Positions 4,279 to 13,497 of a stretch of DNA of 64,000 bases are shown piece by piece. A program made the position numbers and the translations under genes. How positions within the stretch are numbered: the first letter of the stretch is position 1; every line of letters starts with the position of its first letter. Source of the stretch: Ramlibacter algicola (GTDB taxonomy: Bacteria; Pseudomonadota; Gammaproteobacteria; Burkholderiales; Burkholderiaceae_C); contig NZ_JAEDAO010000001.1 of NCBI RefSeq assembly GCF_016641735.1, forward strand, positions 558,001 to 622,000, read 5' to 3'. Below the pieces are notes generated by a model. The model was not told the origin of the DNA, made no database searches, and was given only the letters and a program-made list of their open reading frames with translations.

Positions 4279-4350
4279 GGTCCTGCCGGATGGGGGATGG
4301 GCGGGTGCCGAGCTGCGCGGCTACGATGGGCCGAAACAGCGGAGGGGCCC

Positions 4351-5385
4351 ATGGCGACAAGCGAGAGCATCCGGCGTGCCTACCTGGAGGACCTGGAGGC
4401 GATCGGTGCGTTTCTCGAAGCGAACGACGCCGGCTTCCAAGCGACGCCAAGTCCATCGGAGCATCGCGCACGCAATGAAGCGCTTCACACCGCGCGTGAG
4501 GCCGCGTCGGGTGTGGACACCGAGCCGGACGCGGCGAAGCGACTGCAGGAGTACCTGCGTGCTTGGCGGCCCGGCCACCTGTTCGTCGAAGCGCTGGAGC
4601 CGGCGACTCCGGCGTCGAGCCTCGACTCGCGCGAGGTCCGGCTGCCGAAGGCCGAACCGCTGTCGGCGACCACTGCGCTGCTGACGCTGCCCACCTTCTT
4701 CCCAGGTGCACGCGTTCCGCTCGAAACCCTCCTGCGCGAGCAGCGGCCGATGCTGGAAAGCCGGCCCGACTGGATCGTCGACGTGCGCGGCAACGATGGC
4801 GGCGCCGACACCACGTACGTGCCGCTGCTGCCCTGGCTGATGGGCGACGGCTGGCTGTCGATCGGCGACAGCATCTTTGTCACCGACGTCAACCTGAAGG
4901 CGGAAGAAACCATCTGCGACGTCTTCGCGCCAGGCGATCCGGAGTGCCTGCGCGTGACCGCCGAGAGCACGCGCCGGATGCGGCTCGGGCGCGAAGGCGG
5001 CTGGGTACAGCAGGAATACGACGACGGCTGGCTCCACGCGATGCCGTGCGGTCTCGAACGCAAACGACCAGCGCGCGTGCTCGTCCTGATGGACGCGCGC
5101 TGCGGCAGTTCGGGCGAGCAGTTCCTGCTCACGGTGCGGCAGTCGTTCAGCGTGAAGCTGGTCGGGCGCAGCCGGACGGCGGGCAACCTCGACGCGTCGA
5201 ACCTGCGGCCGCACCTGCTGCCCTCGGGCCGTCGCCTCTGGTACGCGACCACGCTGTCGAACCGCGTCCCCGGGCTGCGGATCGATGGCATCGGCGTGTG
5301 CCCGGACATCCTGCTTCCGTCCGCGTGGGACCCCAGCGAGGACGTGCAGCTTTGCCAGCGCTGGCTCGAAACCGGCCGCTGGTGA
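4351..5385 (+). CDS. S41-family peptidase-like protein
   Basis: A 344-residue protein with the tail-specific protease (S41) core. DWIVDVRGNDGG near residue 145 matches the family's D-x-R-x-N-x-G-G strand, and DARCGSSGEQFLL near residue 250 matches the catalytic-serine loop. It then continues GRSRTAGNLDASN and GIGVCPDILLP. There is no signal peptide and no PDZ domain, so it differs from periplasmic Prc/CtpA and probably acts in the cytoplasm. GGAGGGG just before ATG 4351 decides the start over an upstream in-frame ATG at 4297. The N-terminal 100 residues are helical and unassigned. The substrate is unknown. Confidence 0.6.
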   Translation: MATSESIRRAYLEDLEAIGAFLEANDAGFQATPSPSEHRARNEALHTAREAASGVDTEPDAAKRLQEYLRAWRPGHLFVEALEPATPASSLDSREVRLPKAEPLSATTALLTLPTFFPGARVPLETLLREQRPMLESRPDWIVDVRGNDGGADTTYVPLLPWLMGDGWLSIGDSIFVTDVNLKAEETICDVFAPGDPECLRVTAESTRRMRLGREGGWVQQEYDDGWLHAMPCGLERKRPARVLVLMDARCGSSGEQFLLTVRQSFSVKLVGRSRTAGNLDASNLRPHLLPSGRRLWYATTLSNRVPGLRIDGIGVCPDILLPSAWDPSEDVQLCQRWLETGRW

Positions 5386-5420: not shown

Positions 5421-6119
5421 ATGGGCCGCCGCACCGCCATCGTCGCCGCCATGCAGGAAGAGCTGCAGGCCGTGCTCGACCTCATGCCGGACGAGACCAG
5501 GCAGGTCGCGGCCGGCCGCGAGTTCTTCGTCGGCCACCTGCACGGACGCGAAGTCGTCGTGGTGCTGTCGCGCATCGGCAAGGTCGCGGCGGCCACGACC
5601 GCTGCAGTCCTGATCGAGCGCTTCGCGGTCGACGAGATCGTGTTCACGGGCGTCGCCGGCGGGCTCGGCCCTGACGTCGAGGTCGGGCACGTGGTGGTCG
5701 CCGACGCCTTCCTGCAGCACGACATCGACGCGTCGCCGCTGTTCCCTCGCTACGAGGTGCCGCTGTACGGCACGAGCACGTTCGCGGCGGACAAGCCGCT
5801 GTCGGATCGGCTGGCGCAGGCGGCGGCCAAGGCGCTGCCGGGCGTGCGCGTGCACCGCGGCCTGGTGGTGAGCGGCGACCGCTTCGTCGCCACCAGCAGC
5901 GAGAGCCGCGCGCTGCAAGCCGCGTTGCCGGAAGCGCTCGCGGTGGACATGGAGGGCGCGGCGATCGCGCAGGTGTGCCACGACTGCGGCGTTCCGTTCG
6001 CCGCCGTGCGCACGGTGTCCGACCGCGCCGACGACGCGGCGCACCTGGACTTCGCCACCTTCCTGCGCGACGTGGCGAGCCGCCATTCCGCCGCCATCGT
6101 GCAAGCGCTGCTGGGCTGA
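5421..6119 (+). CDS. mtnN: MTA/SAH nucleosidase
   Basis: A 232-residue 5'-methylthioadenosine/S-adenosylhomocysteine nucleosidase. It cleaves adenine from MTA and SAH, removing by-products of polyamine synthesis and methylation. Family features are the N-terminal AIVAAMQEEL, the glycine loop FTGVAGGLG, the substrate strand LAVDMEGAAIAQVC and the catalytic-aspartate segment VSDRAD. It lies two bases upstream of a SpeD gene and four genes upstream of an aminopropyltransferase-like gene. That context fits its product logic: aminopropyl transfer releases MTA, which this enzyme removes. The assignment is secure; its membership of the downstream system is an inference. Confidence 0.93.
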   Translation: MGRRTAIVAAMQEELQAVLDLMPDETRQVAAGREFFVGHLHGREVVVVLSRIGKVAAATTAAVLIERFAVDEIVFTGVAGGLGPDVEVGHVVVADAFLQHDIDASPLFPRYEVPLYGTSTFAADKPLSDRLAQAAAKALPGVRVHRGLVVSGDRFVATSSESRALQAALPEALAVDMEGAAIAQVCHDCGVPFAAVRTVSDRADDAAHLDFATFLRDVASRHSAAIVQALLG

Positions 6120-6121
6120 CG

Positions 6122-6493
6122 GTGGACGGGTTGCACCTCACCGCCGACCTGCACGATTGCGCTTGCGACCTGCCGTGGTTGCTCGACGCGGAGCGGCTGG
6201 GTGCCTGGTGCGTGCAGGCGGTGCGCGACGCCGGCCTGCAACCGGTGGCGCACCTGTTCCACACGTTTCCCGGGACGGCCGAAGGTCCCGGCGGGGTGAC
6301 GGCGACGGTGCTGCTGGCCGAATCGCACCTGTGCCTGCACACCTGGCCCGAGCGCCGCGGCGTCACCGCGGACGTCTACGTGTGCAACTTCGGCGCCGAC
6401 CATTCGGCCAAGGCGCGCGCGCTGATGGACGCCGTCGTCGCCCGGTTCGCTCCCGCGCATTCGTCGCTGCGCTCGGTGCTGCGCGGGGGCTGA
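6122..6493 (+). CDS. speD: S-adenosylmethionine decarboxylase proenzyme
   Basis: A 123-residue prokaryotic (class 1B) AdoMet decarboxylase. It makes decarboxylated SAM, the aminopropyl donor. The self-cleavage site lies in LLAESHLCLHTWPE: cleavage between E67 and S68 would make the pyruvoyl group. H73 and C88 fall at the same offsets from that serine (+5 and +20) as the processing histidine and catalytic cysteine of the Thermotoga enzyme. GTG 6122 follows the mtnN stop by two bases; TTG 6131 is an alternative start. The compact size and the tight spacing to mtnN argue for one transcription unit. Confidence 0.9.
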   Translation: MDGLHLTADLHDCACDLPWLLDAERLGAWCVQAVRDAGLQPVAHLFHTFPGTAEGPGGVTATVLLAESHLCLHTWPERRGVTADVYVCNFGADHSAKARALMDAVVARFAPAHSSLRSVLRGG

Positions 6494-6552
6494 ATCCGCC
6501 GGGGCGGCGGGTATCATGGCCCGATCCTTTTTCGCACGTTCAGGAGGAAGCC

Positions 6553-7590
6553 ATGGCGCTGATGGACTTCATCAAGAAGCAATTCATCGACATCCTGCAG
6601 TGGACCGAGACCGGCGACGGCACGCTGGCCTGGCGGTTCCCGATGCAGGACATGGAGATCCAGTACGGCGCCTCGCTGACGGTGCGCGAGTCGCAGATGG
6701 CCGTGTTCGTCAACGAAGGCAAGGTGGCCGACGTGTTCGGCCCCGGCATGTACAAGCTGACGACGCAGACCATCCCGGTCCTGACGTACCTGCGCAACTG
6801 GGACAAGCTGTTCCAGTCGCCGTTCAAGAGCGACGTCTACTTCTTCAGCACGCGCCAGCAGGTCGACCAGCGCTGGGGCACGCCGCAGCCGATCACGATC
6901 CGCGACAAGGACTTCGGGGCCGTGCGCCTGCGCGCGTTCGGGAACTTCAGCTACCGCGTCGCCGACCCGCGCCTCTTCCACACCGAGATCTCGGGGACGC
7001 GCGACACGTACACGGTGGCCGACCTGGATGGCCAACTGCGCGGGCTGATCCTGCAGCACATCTCGAACGCCATTGCTTCCAGCGGCATCCCGTTCCTGGA
7101 CCTGGCCGCCAACCAGACCGCGTTCGCGCAGGCCCTCGCCAACGAACTCGCGCCGGCGTTCGCGGCCATCGGCCTGAAGCTGGACCAGATGACGGTGCAG
7201 AACCTGTCGCTGCCCGAGGAACTGCAGAAGATCCTCGACCAGAAGATCGGCATGGGCATGGTCGGCAACGACATGGGCAAGTTCATGCAGTACCAGACCG
7301 GCCAGGCGATCCCGGAGTTCGCCAAGGGCGGCGGTGGGGGGGGCGGCATCGCCGGCGACGCGATGGGCCTGGGCGCCGGCGTGGCGCTGGGCCAGGTGTT
7401 GGCGCAGAACCTGCAGCAAGGCCTGCAGGCGCAACCGGCGCCGGCCGGTGCCGCAGCGGCCGCTGCCAACGTGAAACCGGACGACGTCATGGCCACGCTG
7501 GAGAAGCTTGGCGAGCTCAAGGCCAAGGGCATCCTCACGCAGGAAGAGTTCGATGCGAAGAAGGCCGAGCTGCTGAAGAAGCTCACCTGA
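6553..7590 (+). CDS. SPFH/band-7 protein with SHOCT tail
   Basis: A 345-residue protein. Residues about 20-235 form an SPFH (prohibitin/flotillin-like) domain of the type annotated as virion-core-protein-like or YdjI-like (MAVFVNEGKVADVFGPGMY, then FGNFSYRVADPRLFHTEISG). A glycine-rich linker containing a run of eight G bases (7336-7343) follows. The last 40 residues are a SHOCT domain (LEKLGELKAKGILTQEEFDAKKAELLKK). SPFH proteins scaffold membrane microdomains. AGGAGG (6542-6547) supports ATG 6553. In this cluster it probably organises the membrane components encoded downstream. Confidence 0.85.
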   Translation: MALMDFIKKQFIDILQWTETGDGTLAWRFPMQDMEIQYGASLTVRESQMAVFVNEGKVADVFGPGMYKLTTQTIPVLTYLRNWDKLFQSPFKSDVYFFSTRQQVDQRWGTPQPITIRDKDFGAVRLRAFGNFSYRVADPRLFHTEISGTRDTYTVADLDGQLRGLILQHISNAIASSGIPFLDLAANQTAFAQALANELAPAFAAIGLKLDQMTVQNLSLPEELQKILDQKIGMGMVGNDMGKFMQYQTGQAIPEFAKGGGGGGGIAGDAMGLGAGVALGQVLAQNLQQGLQAQPAPAGAAAAAANVKPDDVMATLEKLGELKAKGILTQEEFDAKKAELLKKLT

Positions 7591-7627
7591 GCGCGTAGCG
7601 CGGGGCCGGAGGGGGCCCCGTTCCGCC

Positions 7628-9124
7628 TTGGCCACGACGGACACCACACCGCAGCGCGTCTACCGGGCACCGTGCCCGGGCTGTGGCGCACCCGTCGAAT
7701 TCCTCAGCGCGCAATCGACGCACGCGGTGTGCAGTTTCTGCCGCAGCACCGTGGTGCGCAGCGGCGACACGCTGCAGCGCCTGGGCAAGATGGCCGAGGT
7801 CTTCGAGGACTACAGCCCGCTGCAGCTGTTCGCCACCGGCCGCTTCGGCGATCGGCCGTTCACGCTGGTCGGGCGGCTGCAATACAGGAGCAGCAGCGGC
7901 GCGTGGGCCGAGTGGCACGCGGCGTTCGACGACGGCGGCAGCGGCATCCTGTCGGAGGACAACGGCTCGTACGTGCTGATGCTGCCGGCGCAGCTGGGGC
8001 GCGAGGCGCCGGCGGCGTCGCAGTTCCGGCTGGGCGCATCGACGGCGATCTCGGGCAAGACGTTCACGGTCGCGAGCAACGACCAGGCGAGCCTGGTGTC
8101 CGCGCAGGGCGAATTGCCGAAGCTGCCGCCGCTGGGGCAGGCGTTCGCGGTCGTCGAACTGCGCAGCCCCGACGGCGAGGTGGTGTCCGTCGACTGGGGC
8201 AGTACGCCGCCCGAAGTGCTGCGGGGCCACCAGGTGCAGCTCGAGGGCCTGCAGATGCGCGGGCTGCGGGCGGAGCAGGCGAAGGAAGACAAGGCCCGGC
8301 AGTTCAACTGCCCGAACTGCGGCGCGCCGGTGTCGGTGCAGCTGGAGACCACCAAGAGCATCACCTGCGGCAACTGCCAGAGCCTGATCGACGTGTCGCA
8401 GGGCATCGGTGGCGAGTTGCGCCATGCCATCCAGGACGAACCGGTTCGGCCGCTCATCCCGCTGGGCCGCGTCGGCAAGCTGCAGGCGCTGACCTGGCAG
8501 GTGGTGGGCTTCCAGCACCGCGTCGGCATGGAGCCTGGCGACGACGAGCAGTTCGGCTGGAGCGAATACCTGCTCTACAACGCGCAGCGCGGCTTCGCCT
8601 TCCTGGTCGATTCCGAAGAGGGCTGGAGCCTCGTGCGGCCGACCACCGGCGCGCCCAAGCTATCGGCGGACGGCCGCTCGGCCAGCTACCTGGGCAAGCA
8701 GTTCTCGCTCAAGTACGCGTACCAGGCCGAGACGACCTACGTCGCCGGCGAGTTCTACTGGCCGGTCGAGCGCGGGCAGAAGACGTTCAACAAGGATTTC
8801 GCGAGCGGCTCGCTGCTGCTGTCGATGGAGCAGTCGCCGCGCGAGATCACCTGGTCCAGTGGCAACGCGATGGCCGGCGACGTGGTCGCGCAGGCCTTCA
8901 ACCTGCAGGGCGAGGGCCGCGACTTCCAGCGCGGCGATGCCGGCCCGACTTCGGGCGGGTCCAAGGGCCTGGGCTGCGGCTGCCTGCTGCTGATCCTGCT
9001 GGGCATCCTGCTCTTCATCGTGCTGCTGTACCTGCTGGATGACGACCGCCGCGGCGGCGGCTCGCGCTACCGTTCCGGCGGCGGCTCGTACGGCGGCTAT
9101 TCCAGCGGCGGGGGCCACAAGTGA
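7628..9124 (+). CDS. DUF4178 zinc-ribbon membrane-anchored protein
   Basis: A 498-residue protein with two four-cysteine zinc ribbons: CPGCGAPVEF with CSFC near residues 16-38, and CPNCGAPVSV with CGNC near 228-250. Each is followed by a DUF4178 beta-rich domain (GRLQYRSSSGAWAEWHAAFD and WQVVGFQHRVGMEPGDDEQF regions). Near residue 455 a strongly hydrophobic segment (LLLILLGILLFIVLLYLL) forms one membrane helix, and a glycine/serine/arginine-rich tail ends the protein. TTG 7628 is the only sensible start; GGAGGGGG lies 12 bases before it. DUF4178 proteins are uncharacterised and often neighbour DUF350 and SpeD/SpeE-like genes, as here. Confidence 0.8.
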   Translation: MATTDTTPQRVYRAPCPGCGAPVEFLSAQSTHAVCSFCRSTVVRSGDTLQRLGKMAEVFEDYSPLQLFATGRFGDRPFTLVGRLQYRSSSGAWAEWHAAFDDGGSGILSEDNGSYVLMLPAQLGREAPAASQFRLGASTAISGKTFTVASNDQASLVSAQGELPKLPPLGQAFAVVELRSPDGEVVSVDWGSTPPEVLRGHQVQLEGLQMRGLRAEQAKEDKARQFNCPNCGAPVSVQLETTKSITCGNCQSLIDVSQGIGGELRHAIQDEPVRPLIPLGRVGKLQALTWQVVGFQHRVGMEPGDDEQFGWSEYLLYNAQRGFAFLVDSEEGWSLVRPTTGAPKLSADGRSASYLGKQFSLKYAYQAETTYVAGEFYWPVERGQKTFNKDFASGSLLLSMEQSPREITWSSGNAMAGDVVAQAFNLQGEGRDFQRGDAGPTSGGSKGLGCGCLLLILLGILLFIVLLYLLDDDRRGGGSRYRSGGGSYGGYSSGGGHK

Positions 9125-9161
9125 GGCGCCCGCCGATCCACTTTCCACAACGGAGGTCTCC

Positions 9162-9380
9162 ATGGACTTCGACTGGCTGAAACCGGCGGCCGTCTTCGGC
9201 TCCATCCTGTACGCGCTGATCGGCGTCGGCATCTTCTGGCTGAGCTTCATCGTCATCGACAGGTTCACGCCCTACGACCTCTGGCTGGAGATCGTCGAGA
9301 AGCAGAACCGGGCGCTCGCGCTGGTCGTCGCCGCGATGTCGCTCGGCATCTGCATCATCGTCGCCGCAGCCATCCACTGA
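9162..9380 (+). CDS. DUF350 small membrane protein
   Basis: A 72-residue protein with two hydrophobic helices (SILYALIGVGIFWLSFIVI and ALALVVAAMSLGICIIVAAA) separated by a short charged stretch containing DLWLEIVEKQN. This matches one two-helix repeat of the DUF350 (YjfL/UshA-neighbour) family. GGAGGT (9152-9157) fixes ATG 9162. It sits between the DUF4178 gene and the membrane SpeE-like gene, with gaps of 37 and 7 bases. DUF350 has no established function; the context suggests a structural or channel-like partner in the same membrane complex. Confidence 0.8.
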   Translation: MDFDWLKPAAVFGSILYALIGVGIFWLSFIVIDRFTPYDLWLEIVEKQNRALALVVAAMSLGICIIVAAAIH

Positions 9381-9387
9381 GGGTGCA

Positions 9388-10923
9388 GTGAACGCACCCG
9401 CCGCGCGGGCCGGGCCGCGTCCCATGGACGTGGCTTTGCTCGCTTCCGTCTTCGTCGTCGCGGCGTGCGGGCTCGTGTACGAGCTCGCCGCCGGCGCGCT
9501 CGCGTCGTACGTGCTCGGCGATTCGGTGCTGCAGTTCTCCACCGTCATCGGCAGCTACCTGTTCGCGATGGGCGTCGGCTCGTGGCTGTCCAGGTTCCTC
9601 GAGCGGCAACTGCCGGCGCACTTCCTGCGCATCGAGCTGCTGGTGGCGCTCGTCGGCGGCGCGATGCCGGCGCTGCTGTTCGTCGCCAACGGCTGGGTGC
9701 CGGGTGGATTCCGCCCGCTGTTGTACGGGCTGGTCGCCGTTGTCGGCACGCTGGTGGGACTGGAGATCCCGCTGGTGATGCGCATCCTCAAGCGCAACGT
9801 GGCGCTGAAGGACCTCGTGTCGCAGGTGCTCACGTTCGACTACCTCGGCGCGCTGGCGGTGTCGATCGCGTTCCCGCTGCTGTTCGTGCCGCACCTGGGG
9901 CTGGTGCGCACCGGCTTCTTGTTCGGGCTGCTCAACGCGGCCGTCGCGGTCTGGGCGCTGTGGCTGTTCCGGCATGAGCTGCGCTTGTGGCGCGCGCACG
10001 CCCTTGCTTGCTCGCTGGTGCTCGCCGGGCTTGCAGCCGGCATGGCAGGCTCGAACGCGATCACGACGCTGGCGGAGGACCGCTTCTACCAGGACCCCGT
10101 GGTGATCGCCGAGAGTTCCGCGTGGCAGCGCATCGTCGTCACGAACGGCCGCGCGGGCCACCGGCTGTTCCTCAACGGCAACCTGCAGTTCGCCGAGCGC
10201 GACGAGTACCGCTACCACGAGGCGCTGGTGCATCCGGTGATGGCCGCGCACGGCGGGCCGCGCAAGGTCGCCATCCTCGGTGGCGGCGACGGCATGGCGG
10301 TGCGCGAGGTGCTCAAGCACCCGAGCGTCGAGAGCGTCACGCTGGTGGAACTCGACCCGCACATGACGCGCCTGTTCTCCACCGACCCGGCGCTGGCGCG
10401 GCTGAATGGCGGCGCGCTGGCCTCGCCGAAGCTGCGCATCGTCAACGCCGACGCGTTCGGCTGGCTGGAACGCAGCGACGAAACCTTCGACGTCGTGATC
10501 GTCGACTTCCCGGACCCGACCAACTTCGCGATCGGCAAGCTTTACACCAACTCGTTCTACGCACTGCTGGATCGGCATCTGGCCGCCACCGGTTACGCGG
10601 TCGTGCAGACGACGTCGCCGCTGGTGGCACGCCAGAGTTTCTGGACCGTGGTGACCACGATCGAATCGGCGGGGCTCGTCGCCACGCCGTACCACGCGCA
10701 CGTGCCCAGCTTCGGCGAATGGGGTTTCGTCGTCGCCAGCCGCCGGCCGTGGCGACTGCCCGAGGCGCTGCCTGCGGGGCTGCGTTTCCTCACGCCCGAG
10801 ACCGTCGGATTGCTGTTCGACTTCCCGCGCGACATGCAGCGCGTGCCCGCCGAAGTGAACCGGTTGTCGAACCAGGTGCTGGTCACGACCTACGAGCGCG
10901 AGTGGGGCAAGGTGATGCCATGA
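9388..10923 (+). CDS. Membrane-embedded spermidine synthase-like protein
   Basis: A 511-residue fusion. About seven membrane helices occupy residues 12-225, followed by a soluble aminopropyltransferase domain. The domain keeps the SAM-binding GGGDG (298-302), the acidic EL-D strand after it, the substrate-side DEYRYHEALVHP and the D373-F-P-D376-P motif equivalent to the catalytic aspartate region of SpeE. So catalysis with decarboxylated SAM is plausible. GTG 9388 lies seven bases after the DUF350 stop. Its position in a SpeD operon supports a real aminopropyl transfer, perhaps to a membrane-associated amine, but the acceptor is unknown. Confidence 0.82.
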   Translation: MNAPAARAGPRPMDVALLASVFVVAACGLVYELAAGALASYVLGDSVLQFSTVIGSYLFAMGVGSWLSRFLERQLPAHFLRIELLVALVGGAMPALLFVANGWVPGGFRPLLYGLVAVVGTLVGLEIPLVMRILKRNVALKDLVSQVLTFDYLGALAVSIAFPLLFVPHLGLVRTGFLFGLLNAAVAVWALWLFRHELRLWRAHALACSLVLAGLAAGMAGSNAITTLAEDRFYQDPVVIAESSAWQRIVVTNGRAGHRLFLNGNLQFAERDEYRYHEALVHPVMAAHGGPRKVAILGGGDGMAVREVLKHPSVESVTLVELDPHMTRLFSTDPALARLNGGALASPKLRIVNADAFGWLERSDETFDVVIVDFPDPTNFAIGKLYTNSFYALLDRHLAATGYAVVQTTSPLVARQSFWTVVTTIESAGLVATPYHAHVPSFGEWGFVVASRRPWRLPEALPAGLRFLTPETVGLLFDFPRDMQRVPAEVNRLSNQVLVTTYEREWGKVMP

Positions 10924-12503
10924 GCGGCGGCTGGCGGCGGCGCACCTGGCTCGCTGCCGCGGCGTCGCTGCCGCTGGGCGCCTGCGCACCGCGTGCCGAG
11001 GTGACGGGCGCGTTGACGGGCACGCACCCCGAGCGCGGTCACTTGCTGCGGCATGCACGCGCGACCGGTGACGTCGTGCAGCGCCGCGCGTCGGTCGTGA
11101 TCGCGGGCGCGGGCGTTGCGGGGCTCGCGGCGGCGCGGGCCTTGCGGTTGGCCGGCATCGACGACTTCGTCCTGCTGGACCTCGAGGACGAGGGCGGCGG
11201 CAACAGCCGCGGCACGCGCATCGCCGGCATCGACTGCCCGCTCGGCGCGCACTACCTGCCCGTGCCCGGCGATGCGGCGCGCGACGTGCAGGACCTGCTG
11301 GAGGAACTCGGCCTGCGCCGGCGCGTCGCGGGCCGCTGGAGCTACGACGAGCGCCACCTGTGCCACAGCCCGCAGGAGCGGGTGTTCTTCCAGGGGCACT
11401 GGCAGGACGGCCTGCTGCCGGTGCAGGACGTCGGGGCCGCGACGCTGGCACAGTACGCGCGATTCGCGCGCCGCATCGAGGCGTTGTCGCGAGAAGCGCG
11501 CTACACGATTCCCGTCAGTGCCTCGCCGCTCGCGCCCGCGCACCTGCGCCTCGACGCGCTGCCGTTTACGCGGTGGCTCGCGGCGGAAGGCTTCGACGAC
11601 CCGCTGCTGCGCTGGTATCTCGAGTACTGCTGCCGCGACGACTATGGCGCCGGGCCCGACACGGTGTCGGCGTGGGCGGGCGTGCACTACTTCGCGAGCC
11701 GGCATGGCTTCCACGCGCCGGGCGAGGAGGGTGACCGCGATGCGGTGCTCACCTGGCCCGAAGGCAATGCATGGCTCAGCCGGCGGCTCGCCGCCGCGTG
11801 TGGCGAGCGGGTCCGGCCGCGTCGCGTGGTGGCGCGCGTCGCTACGACGAAGGATGGCGCGGCCATCGACGCCATCGACACGGCGAGCGGATCGCTGGAG
11901 CGTTGGGAAGCCAAGCACGTCGTGGTCGCCCTGCCGGCCTTCATTGCGGCGCGGGTGCTGGCGTCGCCGCCCGCCTGGCTCGTCGGCGCCGCGCGGGCCA
12001 TGCGCTACGCACCCTGGGTCGTCGCCAACCTGCACCTGCGCGAACCGCTGGCCGACCGGCCCGGCGCTGCGCCGTCCTGGGACAACGTCGTGCACGGCGC
12101 GCGCGGGCTGGGGTACGTCGACGCGCGCCACCAGGCGCTCGACCCGCGGCCGGGGCCGACGGTGCTCACGTGGTACCACGCGCCCGGCGAACAGCAACGC
12201 CATGCACTGCTGCAGTCGTCGTGGCAGGACTGGCATCGCGCGGTGATCGACGACCTCGGCGCTGCGCATCCGGACCTCGCCGGCAAGGTCACGCGCGTCG
12301 AAGTCACGCGCTACGGCCATGCGATGCGCATCCCGGTGCCCGGCACGCGCGCGCAGCTGCAGGGCGTCGCGCTGCACGGCCCGCGCGTGAGCTTCGCCCA
12401 CGCCGACTGGGCCGGCTATTCGGTCTTCGAGGAGGCGTTCACTTCGGGACACGCCGCCGGTGTCGCCGCCGCGCGCCGTCTGGGTCGCACCGCGGTCGCG
12501 TGA
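10920..12503 (+). CDS. Exported FAD-dependent oxidoreductase (amine oxidase-like)
   Basis: A 527-residue flavoprotein. The N-terminus has a twin-arginine-like RRRTW and a lipobox-like LGAC (C22), suggesting export and lipid anchoring. GAGVAG at residues 63-68 begins the FAD-binding Rossmann fold, and the C-terminal DWAGYSVFEEAFTSGHAAG matches the closing FAD segment of flavin amine oxidases and carotenoid desaturases. Its ATG overlaps the previous stop (ATGA), so it is translationally coupled to the SpeE-like protein. Oxidation of a polyamine product or of a membrane lipid amine is the natural guess; the substrate is not proven. Confidence 0.75.
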   Translation: MSGGWRRRTWLAAAASLPLGACAPRAEVTGALTGTHPERGHLLRHARATGDVVQRRASVVIAGAGVAGLAAARALRLAGIDDFVLLDLEDEGGGNSRGTRIAGIDCPLGAHYLPVPGDAARDVQDLLEELGLRRRVAGRWSYDERHLCHSPQERVFFQGHWQDGLLPVQDVGAATLAQYARFARRIEALSREARYTIPVSASPLAPAHLRLDALPFTRWLAAEGFDDPLLRWYLEYCCRDDYGAGPDTVSAWAGVHYFASRHGFHAPGEEGDRDAVLTWPEGNAWLSRRLAAACGERVRPRRVVARVATTKDGAAIDAIDTASGSLERWEAKHVVVALPAFIAARVLASPPAWLVGAARAMRYAPWVVANLHLREPLADRPGAAPSWDNVVHGARGLGYVDARHQALDPRPGPTVLTWYHAPGEQQRHALLQSSWQDWHRAVIDDLGAAHPDLAGKVTRVEVTRYGHAMRIPVPGTRAQLQGVALHGPRVSFAHADWAGYSVFEEAFTSGHAAGVAAARRLGRTAVA

Positions 12504-12507
12504 ACGC

Positions 12508-13497
12508 TCAGCGCAGCCAGCCGCGCTTGCGGAAGTACCACATGGGCACCAGCGCACTGGCCGCCATCAGCACCAGCACGAACGGGTAGCTGGCCGGGCC
12601 GAGGATCGCCAGCTCGGGGAAGGGCAGGTTCATGCCGTACAGGCTGGCCACCAGCGTCGGCGGCAGCAGCGCGACGCTGGCCACCGAGAAGATCTTGATG
12701 ATCTTGTTCTGGTTGATGTTGATGAAGCCGACGGTGGCGTCCATCAGGAAGTTGATCTTGTCGAACAGGAACGCCGTGTGGTTGTCCAGCGATTCGATGT
12801 CGCGCAGGATCTGCCGCGCCTCCTCGAACTGGTCCTGCTTGAGCATCCGGCTGCGCATCATGAAGCTGAGCGCGCGCCGCGTGTCCATCACGTTGCGGCG
12901 GATGCGGCCGTTCAGGTCCTCGTGGCGCGCGATTTCGCCCAGCACCTCGCCGGCCAGCGTGTCGGTCACTTCGCCGGCCAGCACCTGCTTGGACACTTTC
13001 TCCAGCTCGTCGTAGATGCCCTCGAGCGCGTCGGCCGAGTATTCGGCATCGGCGTCGAACAGCTTGAGCAGCACGTCCTTCGCGTCCTCGATCAGCCCCG
13101 GTGCGCGCCGCGCGCGCAGGCGCAGCAGCCGGAACACAGGGACGTCCTCGTCGTGGATCGAGAACAGCACGCCCTTGCTGCGCAGCGCCTCGTTGTGCTG
13201 GTTGAGGATGAAGGCCACGCGCACGGCGCGCGGCTCGTCGTCGTCGGCGATCAGGAAGTCGCTGCGGATGTGCAGCTCGCCGTTGTCTTCCTCGTAGAAA
13301 CGGGCCGATTCCTCGATGTCCTCGTCCATCGCATCCTCGGGGATGGACAGGCCGTAGTACTGCTTGATCCAGCGCTTCTCCTCCGGCGTCGGATCCTCGA
13401 GGTCCACCCAGATCGGCTGGAAGCGGGACAGCTCCTCCAGCGACTCGATCTCCTCCTGGAAGAGACGGCCGTTGGCGAGCGAGAAGATATTGAGCAT
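12508..13497 (-). CDS. corA: CorA-family magnesium/divalent cation channel
   Basis: A 329-residue pentameric CorA-type transporter for Mg2+ (or Co2+/Ni2+). It has an acidic cytoplasmic N-terminal domain and long helices (about 150-250). Two C-terminal membrane helices flank the signature YGMNLPF, with GMN at residues 288-290, and a basic end KRGWLR. It is convergent with the FAD oxidoreductase, only four bases apart. The 131-bp region ahead of it holds a strong paired-hairpin leader (13542-13587). That is of interest because Mg2+ transporter genes are often controlled by leader RNAs. Confidence 0.93.
   Translation of the reverse strand: MLNIFSLANGRLFQEEIESLEELSRFQPIWVDLEDPTPEEKRWIKQYYGLSIPEDAMDEDIEESARFYEEDNGELHIRSDFLIADDDEPRAVRVAFILNQHNEALRSKGVLFSIHDEDVPVFRLLRLRARRAPGLIEDAKDVLLKLFDADAEYSADALEGIYDELEKVSKQVLAGEVTDTLAGEVLGEIARHEDLNGRIRRNVMDTRRALSFMMRSRMLKQDQFEEARQILRDIESLDNHTAFLFDKINFLMDATVGFININQNKIIKIFSVASVALLPPTLVASLYGMNLPFPELAILGPASYPFVLVLMAASALVPMWYFRKRGWLR

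What the first reader, a model, noticed from the sequence alone, without database searches (positions are those of the whole stretch)
5421..12503. Candidate polyamine-linked membrane system (mtnN-speD-SPFH-DUF4178-DUF350-SpeE/TM-FAD oxidase)
Seven plus-strand genes join all steps needed to use decarboxylated SAM at a membrane. SpeD makes the donor. A SpeE-like enzyme with about seven N-terminal helices, which keeps GGGDG and the D-F-P-D-P catalytic region, transfers it. MtnN removes the MTA by-product. SPFH/SHOCT, DUF4178 zinc-ribbon and DUF350 proteins could form the membrane scaffold. The last gene, coupled by ATGA, encodes an exported, probably lipid-anchored flavin amine oxidase-like protein. 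No ordinary soluble SpeE is present. I recall comparative-genomic surveys of envelope-stress neighbourhoods grouping some of these families, but know of no biochemistry. The inferred role is aminopropylation or oxidation of a membrane amine or lipid.
Basis: partly seen in the sequence, partly recalled or inferred. Interest (0 to 1): 0.78.

Follow-up and report, generated by a model that had tools for sequence, protein, structure and literature searches.

The report
Membrane aminopropyl-transfer gene cassette
A small group of bacterial genes seems to make a polyamine-type chemical group inside the cell and to attach it to something at the outer face of the inner membrane; the gene family was known, but where the enzyme sits and what it modifies are open, testable questions.

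The parts
5421..6119 (+). mtnN, MTA/SAH nucleosidase: flanking host gene, not part of the conserved cassette
   Evidence: NF004079 293.5 bits; abuts corA without cassette in L120, L121, L123; linked in 0 of 56 loci
6122..6493 (+). speD, class 1b AdoMet decarboxylase; E67-S68, H73, C88 intact; copy that moved with the cassette
   Evidence: PF02675 84.8 bits; S68, H73, C88 align with 1tlu S63, H68, C83
6553..7590 (+). SPFH/Band-7 protein with C-terminal SHOCT, no TM helix detected by hydropathy
   Evidence: PF13421 259 bits, PF09851 38.3 bits; hydropathy
7628..9124 (+). Two CxxC pairs (zinc ribbons), two DUF4178 matches and a C-terminal hydrophobic helix; TTG start uncertain (my gene caller preferred 7727, which would cut off the first CxxC)
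   Evidence: PF13785 101.2 bits, two matches, CxxC and helix, caller
9162..9380 (+). DUF350 membrane protein, short form with two hydrophobic helices
   Evidence: PF03994 50.9 bits
9388..10923 (+). SpeE/TM: seven N-terminal helices (12-43, 46-70, 75-103, 105-135, 140-170, 172-193, 201-220) and an aminopropyltransferase domain (about 224-511)
10920..12503 (+). Flavin amine-oxidase-fold protein with twin-arginine plus lipobox-like N-terminus
12508..13497 (-). corA-like gene: other flank of the insertion, not part of the system
   Evidence: PF01544 165.3 bits; mtnN-corA junction in relatives

Best explanation
It is a gene cassette (five-gene core SPFH/SHOCT, DUF4178, DUF350, SpeE/TM, FAD lipoprotein; here with speD as a sixth) that uses decarboxylated SAM (dcSAM) for a membrane-linked aminopropyl transfer, not for ordinary spermidine synthesis. 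SpeD makes dcSAM in the cytoplasm. SpeE/TM has its N-terminus inside, seven TM helices and the transferase domain on the periplasmic face. dcSAM must therefore cross the membrane, most simply through the 7TM part, whose E32, E126, R132 and D151 are invariant or nearly so. The transferase then aminopropylates an amine in the periplasm or the outer leaflet, and the Tat-exported flavin protein in the same compartment oxidises or removes the product. Shown by computation: gene content, conserved linkage, SpeD dependence by co-occurrence and by decay, conserved active site, fold, charge and cysteine bias. Inferred: periplasmic location (about 0.6), dcSAM transport by the 7TM part (about 0.35), a lipid or envelope amine as acceptor (about 0.3), scaffold role of SPFH, DUF4178 and DUF350.
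Against: No periplasmic use of dcSAM is known to me. Topology rests on sequence statistics with loops set from one model; the model's coordinates could not be inspected. Helix 7 scored within residues 201-220 alone goes down to 0.63 in one sequence. The SPFH protein, probably cytoplasmic, is also nearly Cys-free (0.1 per 200 residues), so Cys loss alone is weak evidence. Within the genus 24 of 32 genomes without SpeE/TM still have SpeD, and 9 of the 20 without a detected aminopropyltransferase keep its four catalytic residues: SpeD can outlive SpeE/TM or has another use. 2 of 27 phylum SpeE/TM genomes showed no AdoMetDC of either class, and G301 none in the family sample. Acceptor unknown; the co-occurrence tests were not corrected for shared ancestry.
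Confidence: 0.5

Rival explanations
1. Cytoplasmic-face enzyme: helix 7 does not cross (or another helix re-enters), so the transferase domain is in the cytosol and aminopropylates an inner-leaflet lipid, a membrane protein or a soluble amine.
For: dcSAM and MTA are cytosolic metabolites (general knowledge); helix 2 is the least hydrophobic of the seven (mean 1.46); SPFH and DUF4178 partners look cytoplasmic; SPFH is also Cys-poor.
Against: K+R bias in 50 of 50 sequences, helix 7 region at least 1.4 in 50 of 50, K+R before helix 7 higher than after in 44 and equal in 6; Cys loss is in the catalytic segment, not in the TM part (1.99 per 200 residues).
Confidence: 0.3
2. Sensor reading: the SpeE-like domain senses dcSAM or polyamines and tunes a membrane-stress apparatus (the monitoring idea of Ravi et al. 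2024) without much catalysis.
For: Sister operons carry PspA and CesT/Tir partners (PMC11237479, passages). From recall, Li et al. 2019 saw no spermidine synthase complementation.
Against: Both catalytic aspartates and the other transferase residues are kept; an enzyme-like flavin partner goes along.
Confidence: 0.15
3. Ordinary polyamine synthase tethered to the membrane, making spermidine or norspermidine for the cell or its surface.
For: Closest solved relatives are a Thermus triamine/agmatine aminopropyltransferase and thermospermine synthase. Surface-localised spermidine is known in Pseudomonas aeruginosa (Johnson et al. 2012, seen only as a reference entry).
Against: Acceptor-side segments differ from the soluble SpeE sequences aligned: D-x-P-D-P, TSP and PSFG[ED]WG (12 SpeE/TM and 16 soluble sequences, L035 deviating). 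11 of 18 genomes with soluble SpeE also keep SpeE/TM. Recalled non-complementation.
Confidence: 0.2
4. First reader's seven-gene unit with MtnN clearing MTA as a built-in step.
For: 2-bp gap mtnN-speD in the window; MTA is the by-product of aminopropyl transfer.
Against: mtnN near SpeE/TM in 0 of 56 loci; 25 of 85 SpeE/TM genomes have no match to this MtnN and the association is not positive (60/25/55/10); in L129 the cassette with speD sits next to corA and no mtnN is found in that 19-kb stretch; mtnN-corA junctions without cassette in three relatives.
Confidence: 0.03

Closest known systems
PspA-CesT/Tir operons with a spermine/spermidine-synthase-like domain fused to 7TM (Ravi et al. 2024, mSystems, PMC11237479; passages read, supplements not)
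   Same: SpeE/TM, DUF350, DUF4178; [quoted passage not shown]
   Different: None of the six cassette proteins matches PspA or CesT/Tir; here SPFH/SHOCT and a Tat-type FAD lipoprotein go with DUF4178 and SpeE/TM. In the passages read the band-7 variant is told under the ATP-grasp operon group. A word search of the main text finds no 'periplasm'.
AdoMetDC with MFS-SpdSyn fusion and DUF350 (Li et al. 2019, Biochem J 476:2579; not held, abstract recalled; citations seen)
   Same: AdoMetDC of class 1b or 2 with a membrane SpdSyn-like fusion and DUF350; suggested acceptor other than putrescine
   Different: Added here: gene relocation, SpeD decay, charge and cysteine evidence for sidedness, SPFH and FAD partners. 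Whether Li et al. show any of these could not be checked.
NCBIfam NF002956 (PRK03612) polyamine aminopropyltransferase
   Same: Near full-length match, 680.3 bits (cut-off 472), TM part included
   Different: The name implies a polyamine acceptor, which was not tested here
Soluble spermidine, aminopropylagmatine and thermospermine synthases (1uir, 3anx, 6bq2, 1iy9)
   Same: Fold and dcSAM-site residues
   Different: Seven N-terminal helices, catalytic domain nearly free of Cys, altered acceptor-side segments
Flavin amine oxidases (bacterial putrescine oxidase, MAO, polyamine oxidase)
   Different: Tat-type lipoprotein export; no lysine among the residues listed as invariant or nearly so in 32 orthologs, although a flavin-contacting lysine is recalled as typical of the oxidases

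Membership tests
Aminopropyltransferase (Spermine_synth) | Transferase fold | tested here: met
Aminopropyltransferase (Spermine_synth) | dcSAM-site and catalytic residues (Gln, Tyr, GGGDG Asp, D-x-x-D-P) | tested here: met
   Q267, Y276, D301, D323, D355, D373 invariant, D376 at least 90% in 50 sequences; residue roles recalled from the human and Thermotoga enzymes
Aminopropyltransferase (Spermine_synth) | Transfers aminopropyl from dcSAM to an amine, releasing MTA | not testable with these tools
   Biochemistry needed
NF002956 / PRK03612 membrane polyamine aminopropyltransferase | Profile match over its cut-off along the protein | tested here: met
   680.3 bits, cut-off 472, residues 7-508 of 511
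Fused MFS/spermidine synthase (NF037959) | Profile match over cut-off; MFS fold of the TM part | tested here: inconclusive
   40 bits at a cut-off of 40; no Pfam match of note for the TM part; fold lists were filled by the SpeE domain
Class 1b AdoMet decarboxylase | Pyruvoyl-forming Glu-Ser, His and Cys | tested here: met
   E67, S68, H73, C88; the last three align with 1tlu S63, H68, C83 (catalytic roles recalled); TIGR03330 69.6 bits, under its cut-off 75.65
PspA-CesT/Tir-SpeE operon group (Ravi et al. 2024) | PspA and CesT/Tir dyad in the operon | tested here: not met
   None of the six cassette proteins matches PspA or CesT/Tir; both are present in distant SpeE/TM loci such as L022 and L024. 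The rest of the genome was not searched for them.
Flavin amine oxidase | FAD-binding GxGxxG and amine oxidase fold | tested here: met
Flavin amine oxidase | Oxidises an amine with O2 | not testable with these tools
   No conserved lysine in the lists; substrate unknown
Tat-exported lipoprotein (FAD protein) | Twin arginine followed by lipobox Cys | tested here: met
   RR then lipobox-like Cys within 40 residues in 63 of 68 sequences (lenient pattern); 40 of 68 with a strict pattern. Export itself was not shown.

The most novel reading that the evidence does not exclude
A transporter-transferase fusion: the 7TM half carries dcSAM across the inner membrane and the periplasmic half aminopropylates an envelope amine, for example the phosphatidylethanolamine headgroup, giving a dicationic lipid, while the Tat-exported flavin lipoprotein removes the mark. 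It would be an envelope charge switch with writer and eraser, and, as far as I know, the first dcSAM chemistry outside the cytoplasm.
Probability: 0.12. Interest if true: 0.9.

Novelty: new variant of a known kind. Interest (0 to 1): 0.6.

Why it matters
The family is large: the protein search hit its limit with 7,998 scored clusters, all of them matches (distant soluble relatives may be among them), and where a source names one of the 120 listed it is as spermidine/spermine synthase or polyamine aminopropyltransferase. If the catalytic domain is periplasmic, that name misleads, and a metabolite thought to be strictly cytosolic would be used outside. The gene move in the window gives a clean handle: strains with and without the cassette, in which intact SpeD tends to go with it. 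A new covalent envelope modification would bear on membrane stress and on tolerance of cationic agents.

Tried and rejected
MtnN as part of the system: rejected. One-operon proof: the promoter and terminator scan gave 0 promoter-like sites (0.3 expected) and 2 terminator-like sites (2.5 expected), so no information. Genes inside the cassette in Acidovorax and relatives (TonB receptor, restriction-modification, sensor kinase) were looked at as possible partners and set aside as insertions. The SpeD association, nearly perfect at family level, is looser in the genus sample and is reported as such. Cysteine loss as stand-alone proof of export: rejected, because SPFH is Cys-poor too. Paper searches for a membrane or periplasmic aminopropyltransferase found nothing on the point (0 papers; 6 listed, listing only); Li et al. 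2019 is not held. PMC11107197, PMC10407285 and PMC7857480 were seen only through word searches.

Selections and rows dropped: the named loci are the best 80 of 567 confirmed. Alignment A1 holds the window and 49 of 102 listed orthologs; L036 was left out. G001 and G203 were left out of the 27 phylum SpeE/TM genomes (weak or deviating hits). In the family sample 10 of the 95 genomes hit by SpeE/TM were not counted as SpeE/TM (soluble-type or weak hits only); the handle lists were copied by hand, and the 85 include split or partial copies (G262, G303, G335, G352, G376) and one with an internal TAG (G280). In the genus sample G411 and G424 (short fragments) were not counted as SpeE/TM. Four genus genomes with a soluble-type SpeE hit and no SpeE/TM (G403, G437, G446, G447) were left out of the group of 20; in G446 the only SpeD found is broken, against the simple rule.
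Full report
What is there. The window (G000:C1:558001-622000) comes from a genome whose nearest named relatives by SpeE/TM are Ramlibacter and other Comamonadaceae. Families: MtnN (NF004079), AdoMet decarboxylase (PF02675), SPFH with SHOCT (PF13421, PF09851), DUF4178 with CxxC pairs (PF13785), DUF350 (PF03994), SpeE/TM (PF01564; NF002956) and a flavin amine-oxidase-like protein (PF13450).

The conserved unit. Of the 56 named loci with at least 8 kb on both sides, SpeE/TM has DUF4178 on its strand in 56, DUF350 in 56, SPFH in 55, FAD in 54, all four in 53; speD is found in 16, each on the other strand; mtnN in none. In an even draw of 249 phylum genomes DUF4178 matches in 19 (18 over its cut-off), and all 19 carry SpeE/TM on the same contig, at most about 10.5 kb away. 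Among more distant SpeE/TM loci, some have PspA and CesT/Tir-type clusters in place of SPFH (L022, L024, L025) or DUF2170 and PspA (for example L028, L031, L034) (one representative of each cluster was tested), in line with Ravi et al. 2024 (PMC11237479; passages read).

mtnN is a neighbour by chance. In three relatives mtnN and the corA-like gene lie end to end without the cassette: 3' ends overlapping by 11 bp (L120), 159 bp apart (L121), overlapping by 8 bp (L123); in L122, from the same genus, 4.3 kb that I did not identify lies between. In the window six genes, speD to FAD, sit between these two genes, 2 bp after mtnN and 4 bp before corA. In a second genome of the genus (L129) the same six genes sit beside corA, but no mtnN is found in that 19-kb stretch; the two cases may go back to one event. 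A usual site of the cassette, between a 770-aa gene and an M24 peptidase gene (for example L132 and L137), exists in the own genome with the two genes 91 bp apart and no cassette (L037). So the cassette with its own speD has moved. Across 150 family genomes MtnN shows no positive association with SpeE/TM: 60 both, 25 SpeE/TM only, 55 MtnN only, 10 neither.

SpeD serves SpeE/TM. In the same 150 genomes SpeE/TM (85) and SpeD (95) give 84 both, 1 SpeE/TM only, 11 SpeD only, 54 neither; without the 18 genomes with soluble SpeE, 73, 1, 4 and 54 (Fisher 5e-31, not corrected for ancestry). Over the phylum, 22 of 27 SpeE/TM genomes have PF02675 SpeD; of the other five, three have class 2 AdoMetDC (PF01536 was searched in eight genomes only). 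Against this, in 59 genomes of the genus 26 of 27 SpeE/TM genomes have SpeD but so do 24 of the 32 without. I therefore looked at four catalytic residues (three of the positions checked against 1tlu). All four are kept in 25 of 26 SpeE/TM genomes (in the 26th, G439, both genes are broken), but in only 9 of 20 genomes without a detected aminopropyltransferase (Fisher 1.2e-4). A second, resident-type speD in genomes whose other speD is intact, moved with the cassette (G000, G414) or lying next to soluble SpeE (G403, G437, G447), is broken in 5 of 5; its site was checked only in G000 and G414. G401, which has a soluble SpeE with its own SpeD and also the cassette with a nearby SpeD, keeps both SpeD copies intact. 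In G446, with a soluble-type SpeE hit, the only SpeD found is broken. On the whole this is what dependence of SpeE/TM on dcSAM predicts; the nine intact cases without a known partner are unexplained.

Mechanism proposed. Cytosolic SpeD makes dcSAM; SpeE/TM lets it cross and transfers the aminopropyl group to an amine at the periplasmic face; MTA is lost or taken back; the flavin lipoprotein acts on the product; SPFH, DUF4178 and DUF350 organise the complex at the membrane. Supply of dcSAM by SpeD and a working transferase site are supported; the side is suggested by two statistics; transport, acceptor, action of the flavin protein and scaffold are inference. Betaproteobacteria are known to contain putrescine and 2-hydroxyputrescine rather than spermidine (recalled; one search on this gave no paper), which fits a use of dcSAM outside spermidine.

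Known and new. The gene association is in print (Ravi et al. 2024; Li et al. 2019 by recall). DUF4178 occurs in one held paper only. Not seen in the held papers searched: a periplasmic place for the transferase domain, the movement of the cassette with its speD, and the decay of SpeD. The supplements of Ravi et al. and the text of Li et al. were not readable here, so priority for these points is not claimed.

Noticed in passing
L183 (own genome G000:C1:365300-366000), L130, L138-L142, L144, L148, L152, L153, L155-L157, L159, L161, L163: Catalytically broken SpeD copies in the genus stay open and keep the tail PEWTEQRSL(D/E)RG in 17 of 17 at protein level while the codons vary synonymously (30 of 32 intact resident-type copies have it too). 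They look like pseudoenzymes under selection for something other than decarboxylation. The moved, intact copies (window 6122-6493 and L129) lack this tail.
   Followed up: partly
L124, L143, L145, L146, L147, L149, L150, L151, L154: Nine genus genomes keep all four SpeD catalytic residues although no SpeE/TM (in G411, L150, only a 37-residue fragment) and no soluble SpeE was found; the user of dcSAM there is unknown.
   Followed up: partly
L040, L045, L053, L062, L066, L076, L077, L085, L092, L010: In Acidovorax and relatives, restriction-modification, TonB receptor, sensor kinase and HD-domain response regulator genes are inserted inside the cassette, between DUF350 and SpeE/TM or between SpeE/TM and FAD.
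   Followed up: partly
window 6553-7590 and 62 orthologs: The SPFH/SHOCT protein is almost free of cysteine (0.1 per 200 residues over 63 sequences); no TM helix was found in the window's copy.
   Followed up: no
G439:C1:5197350-5204253 (L165 holds the speD part): SpeE/TM in two overlapping pieces and speD with an internal stop in the same 63%-complete genome: either shared decay or sequencing errors.
   Followed up: no
window 4297-5385: S41-family peptidase gene (PF03572) directly upstream of mtnN.
   Followed up: no
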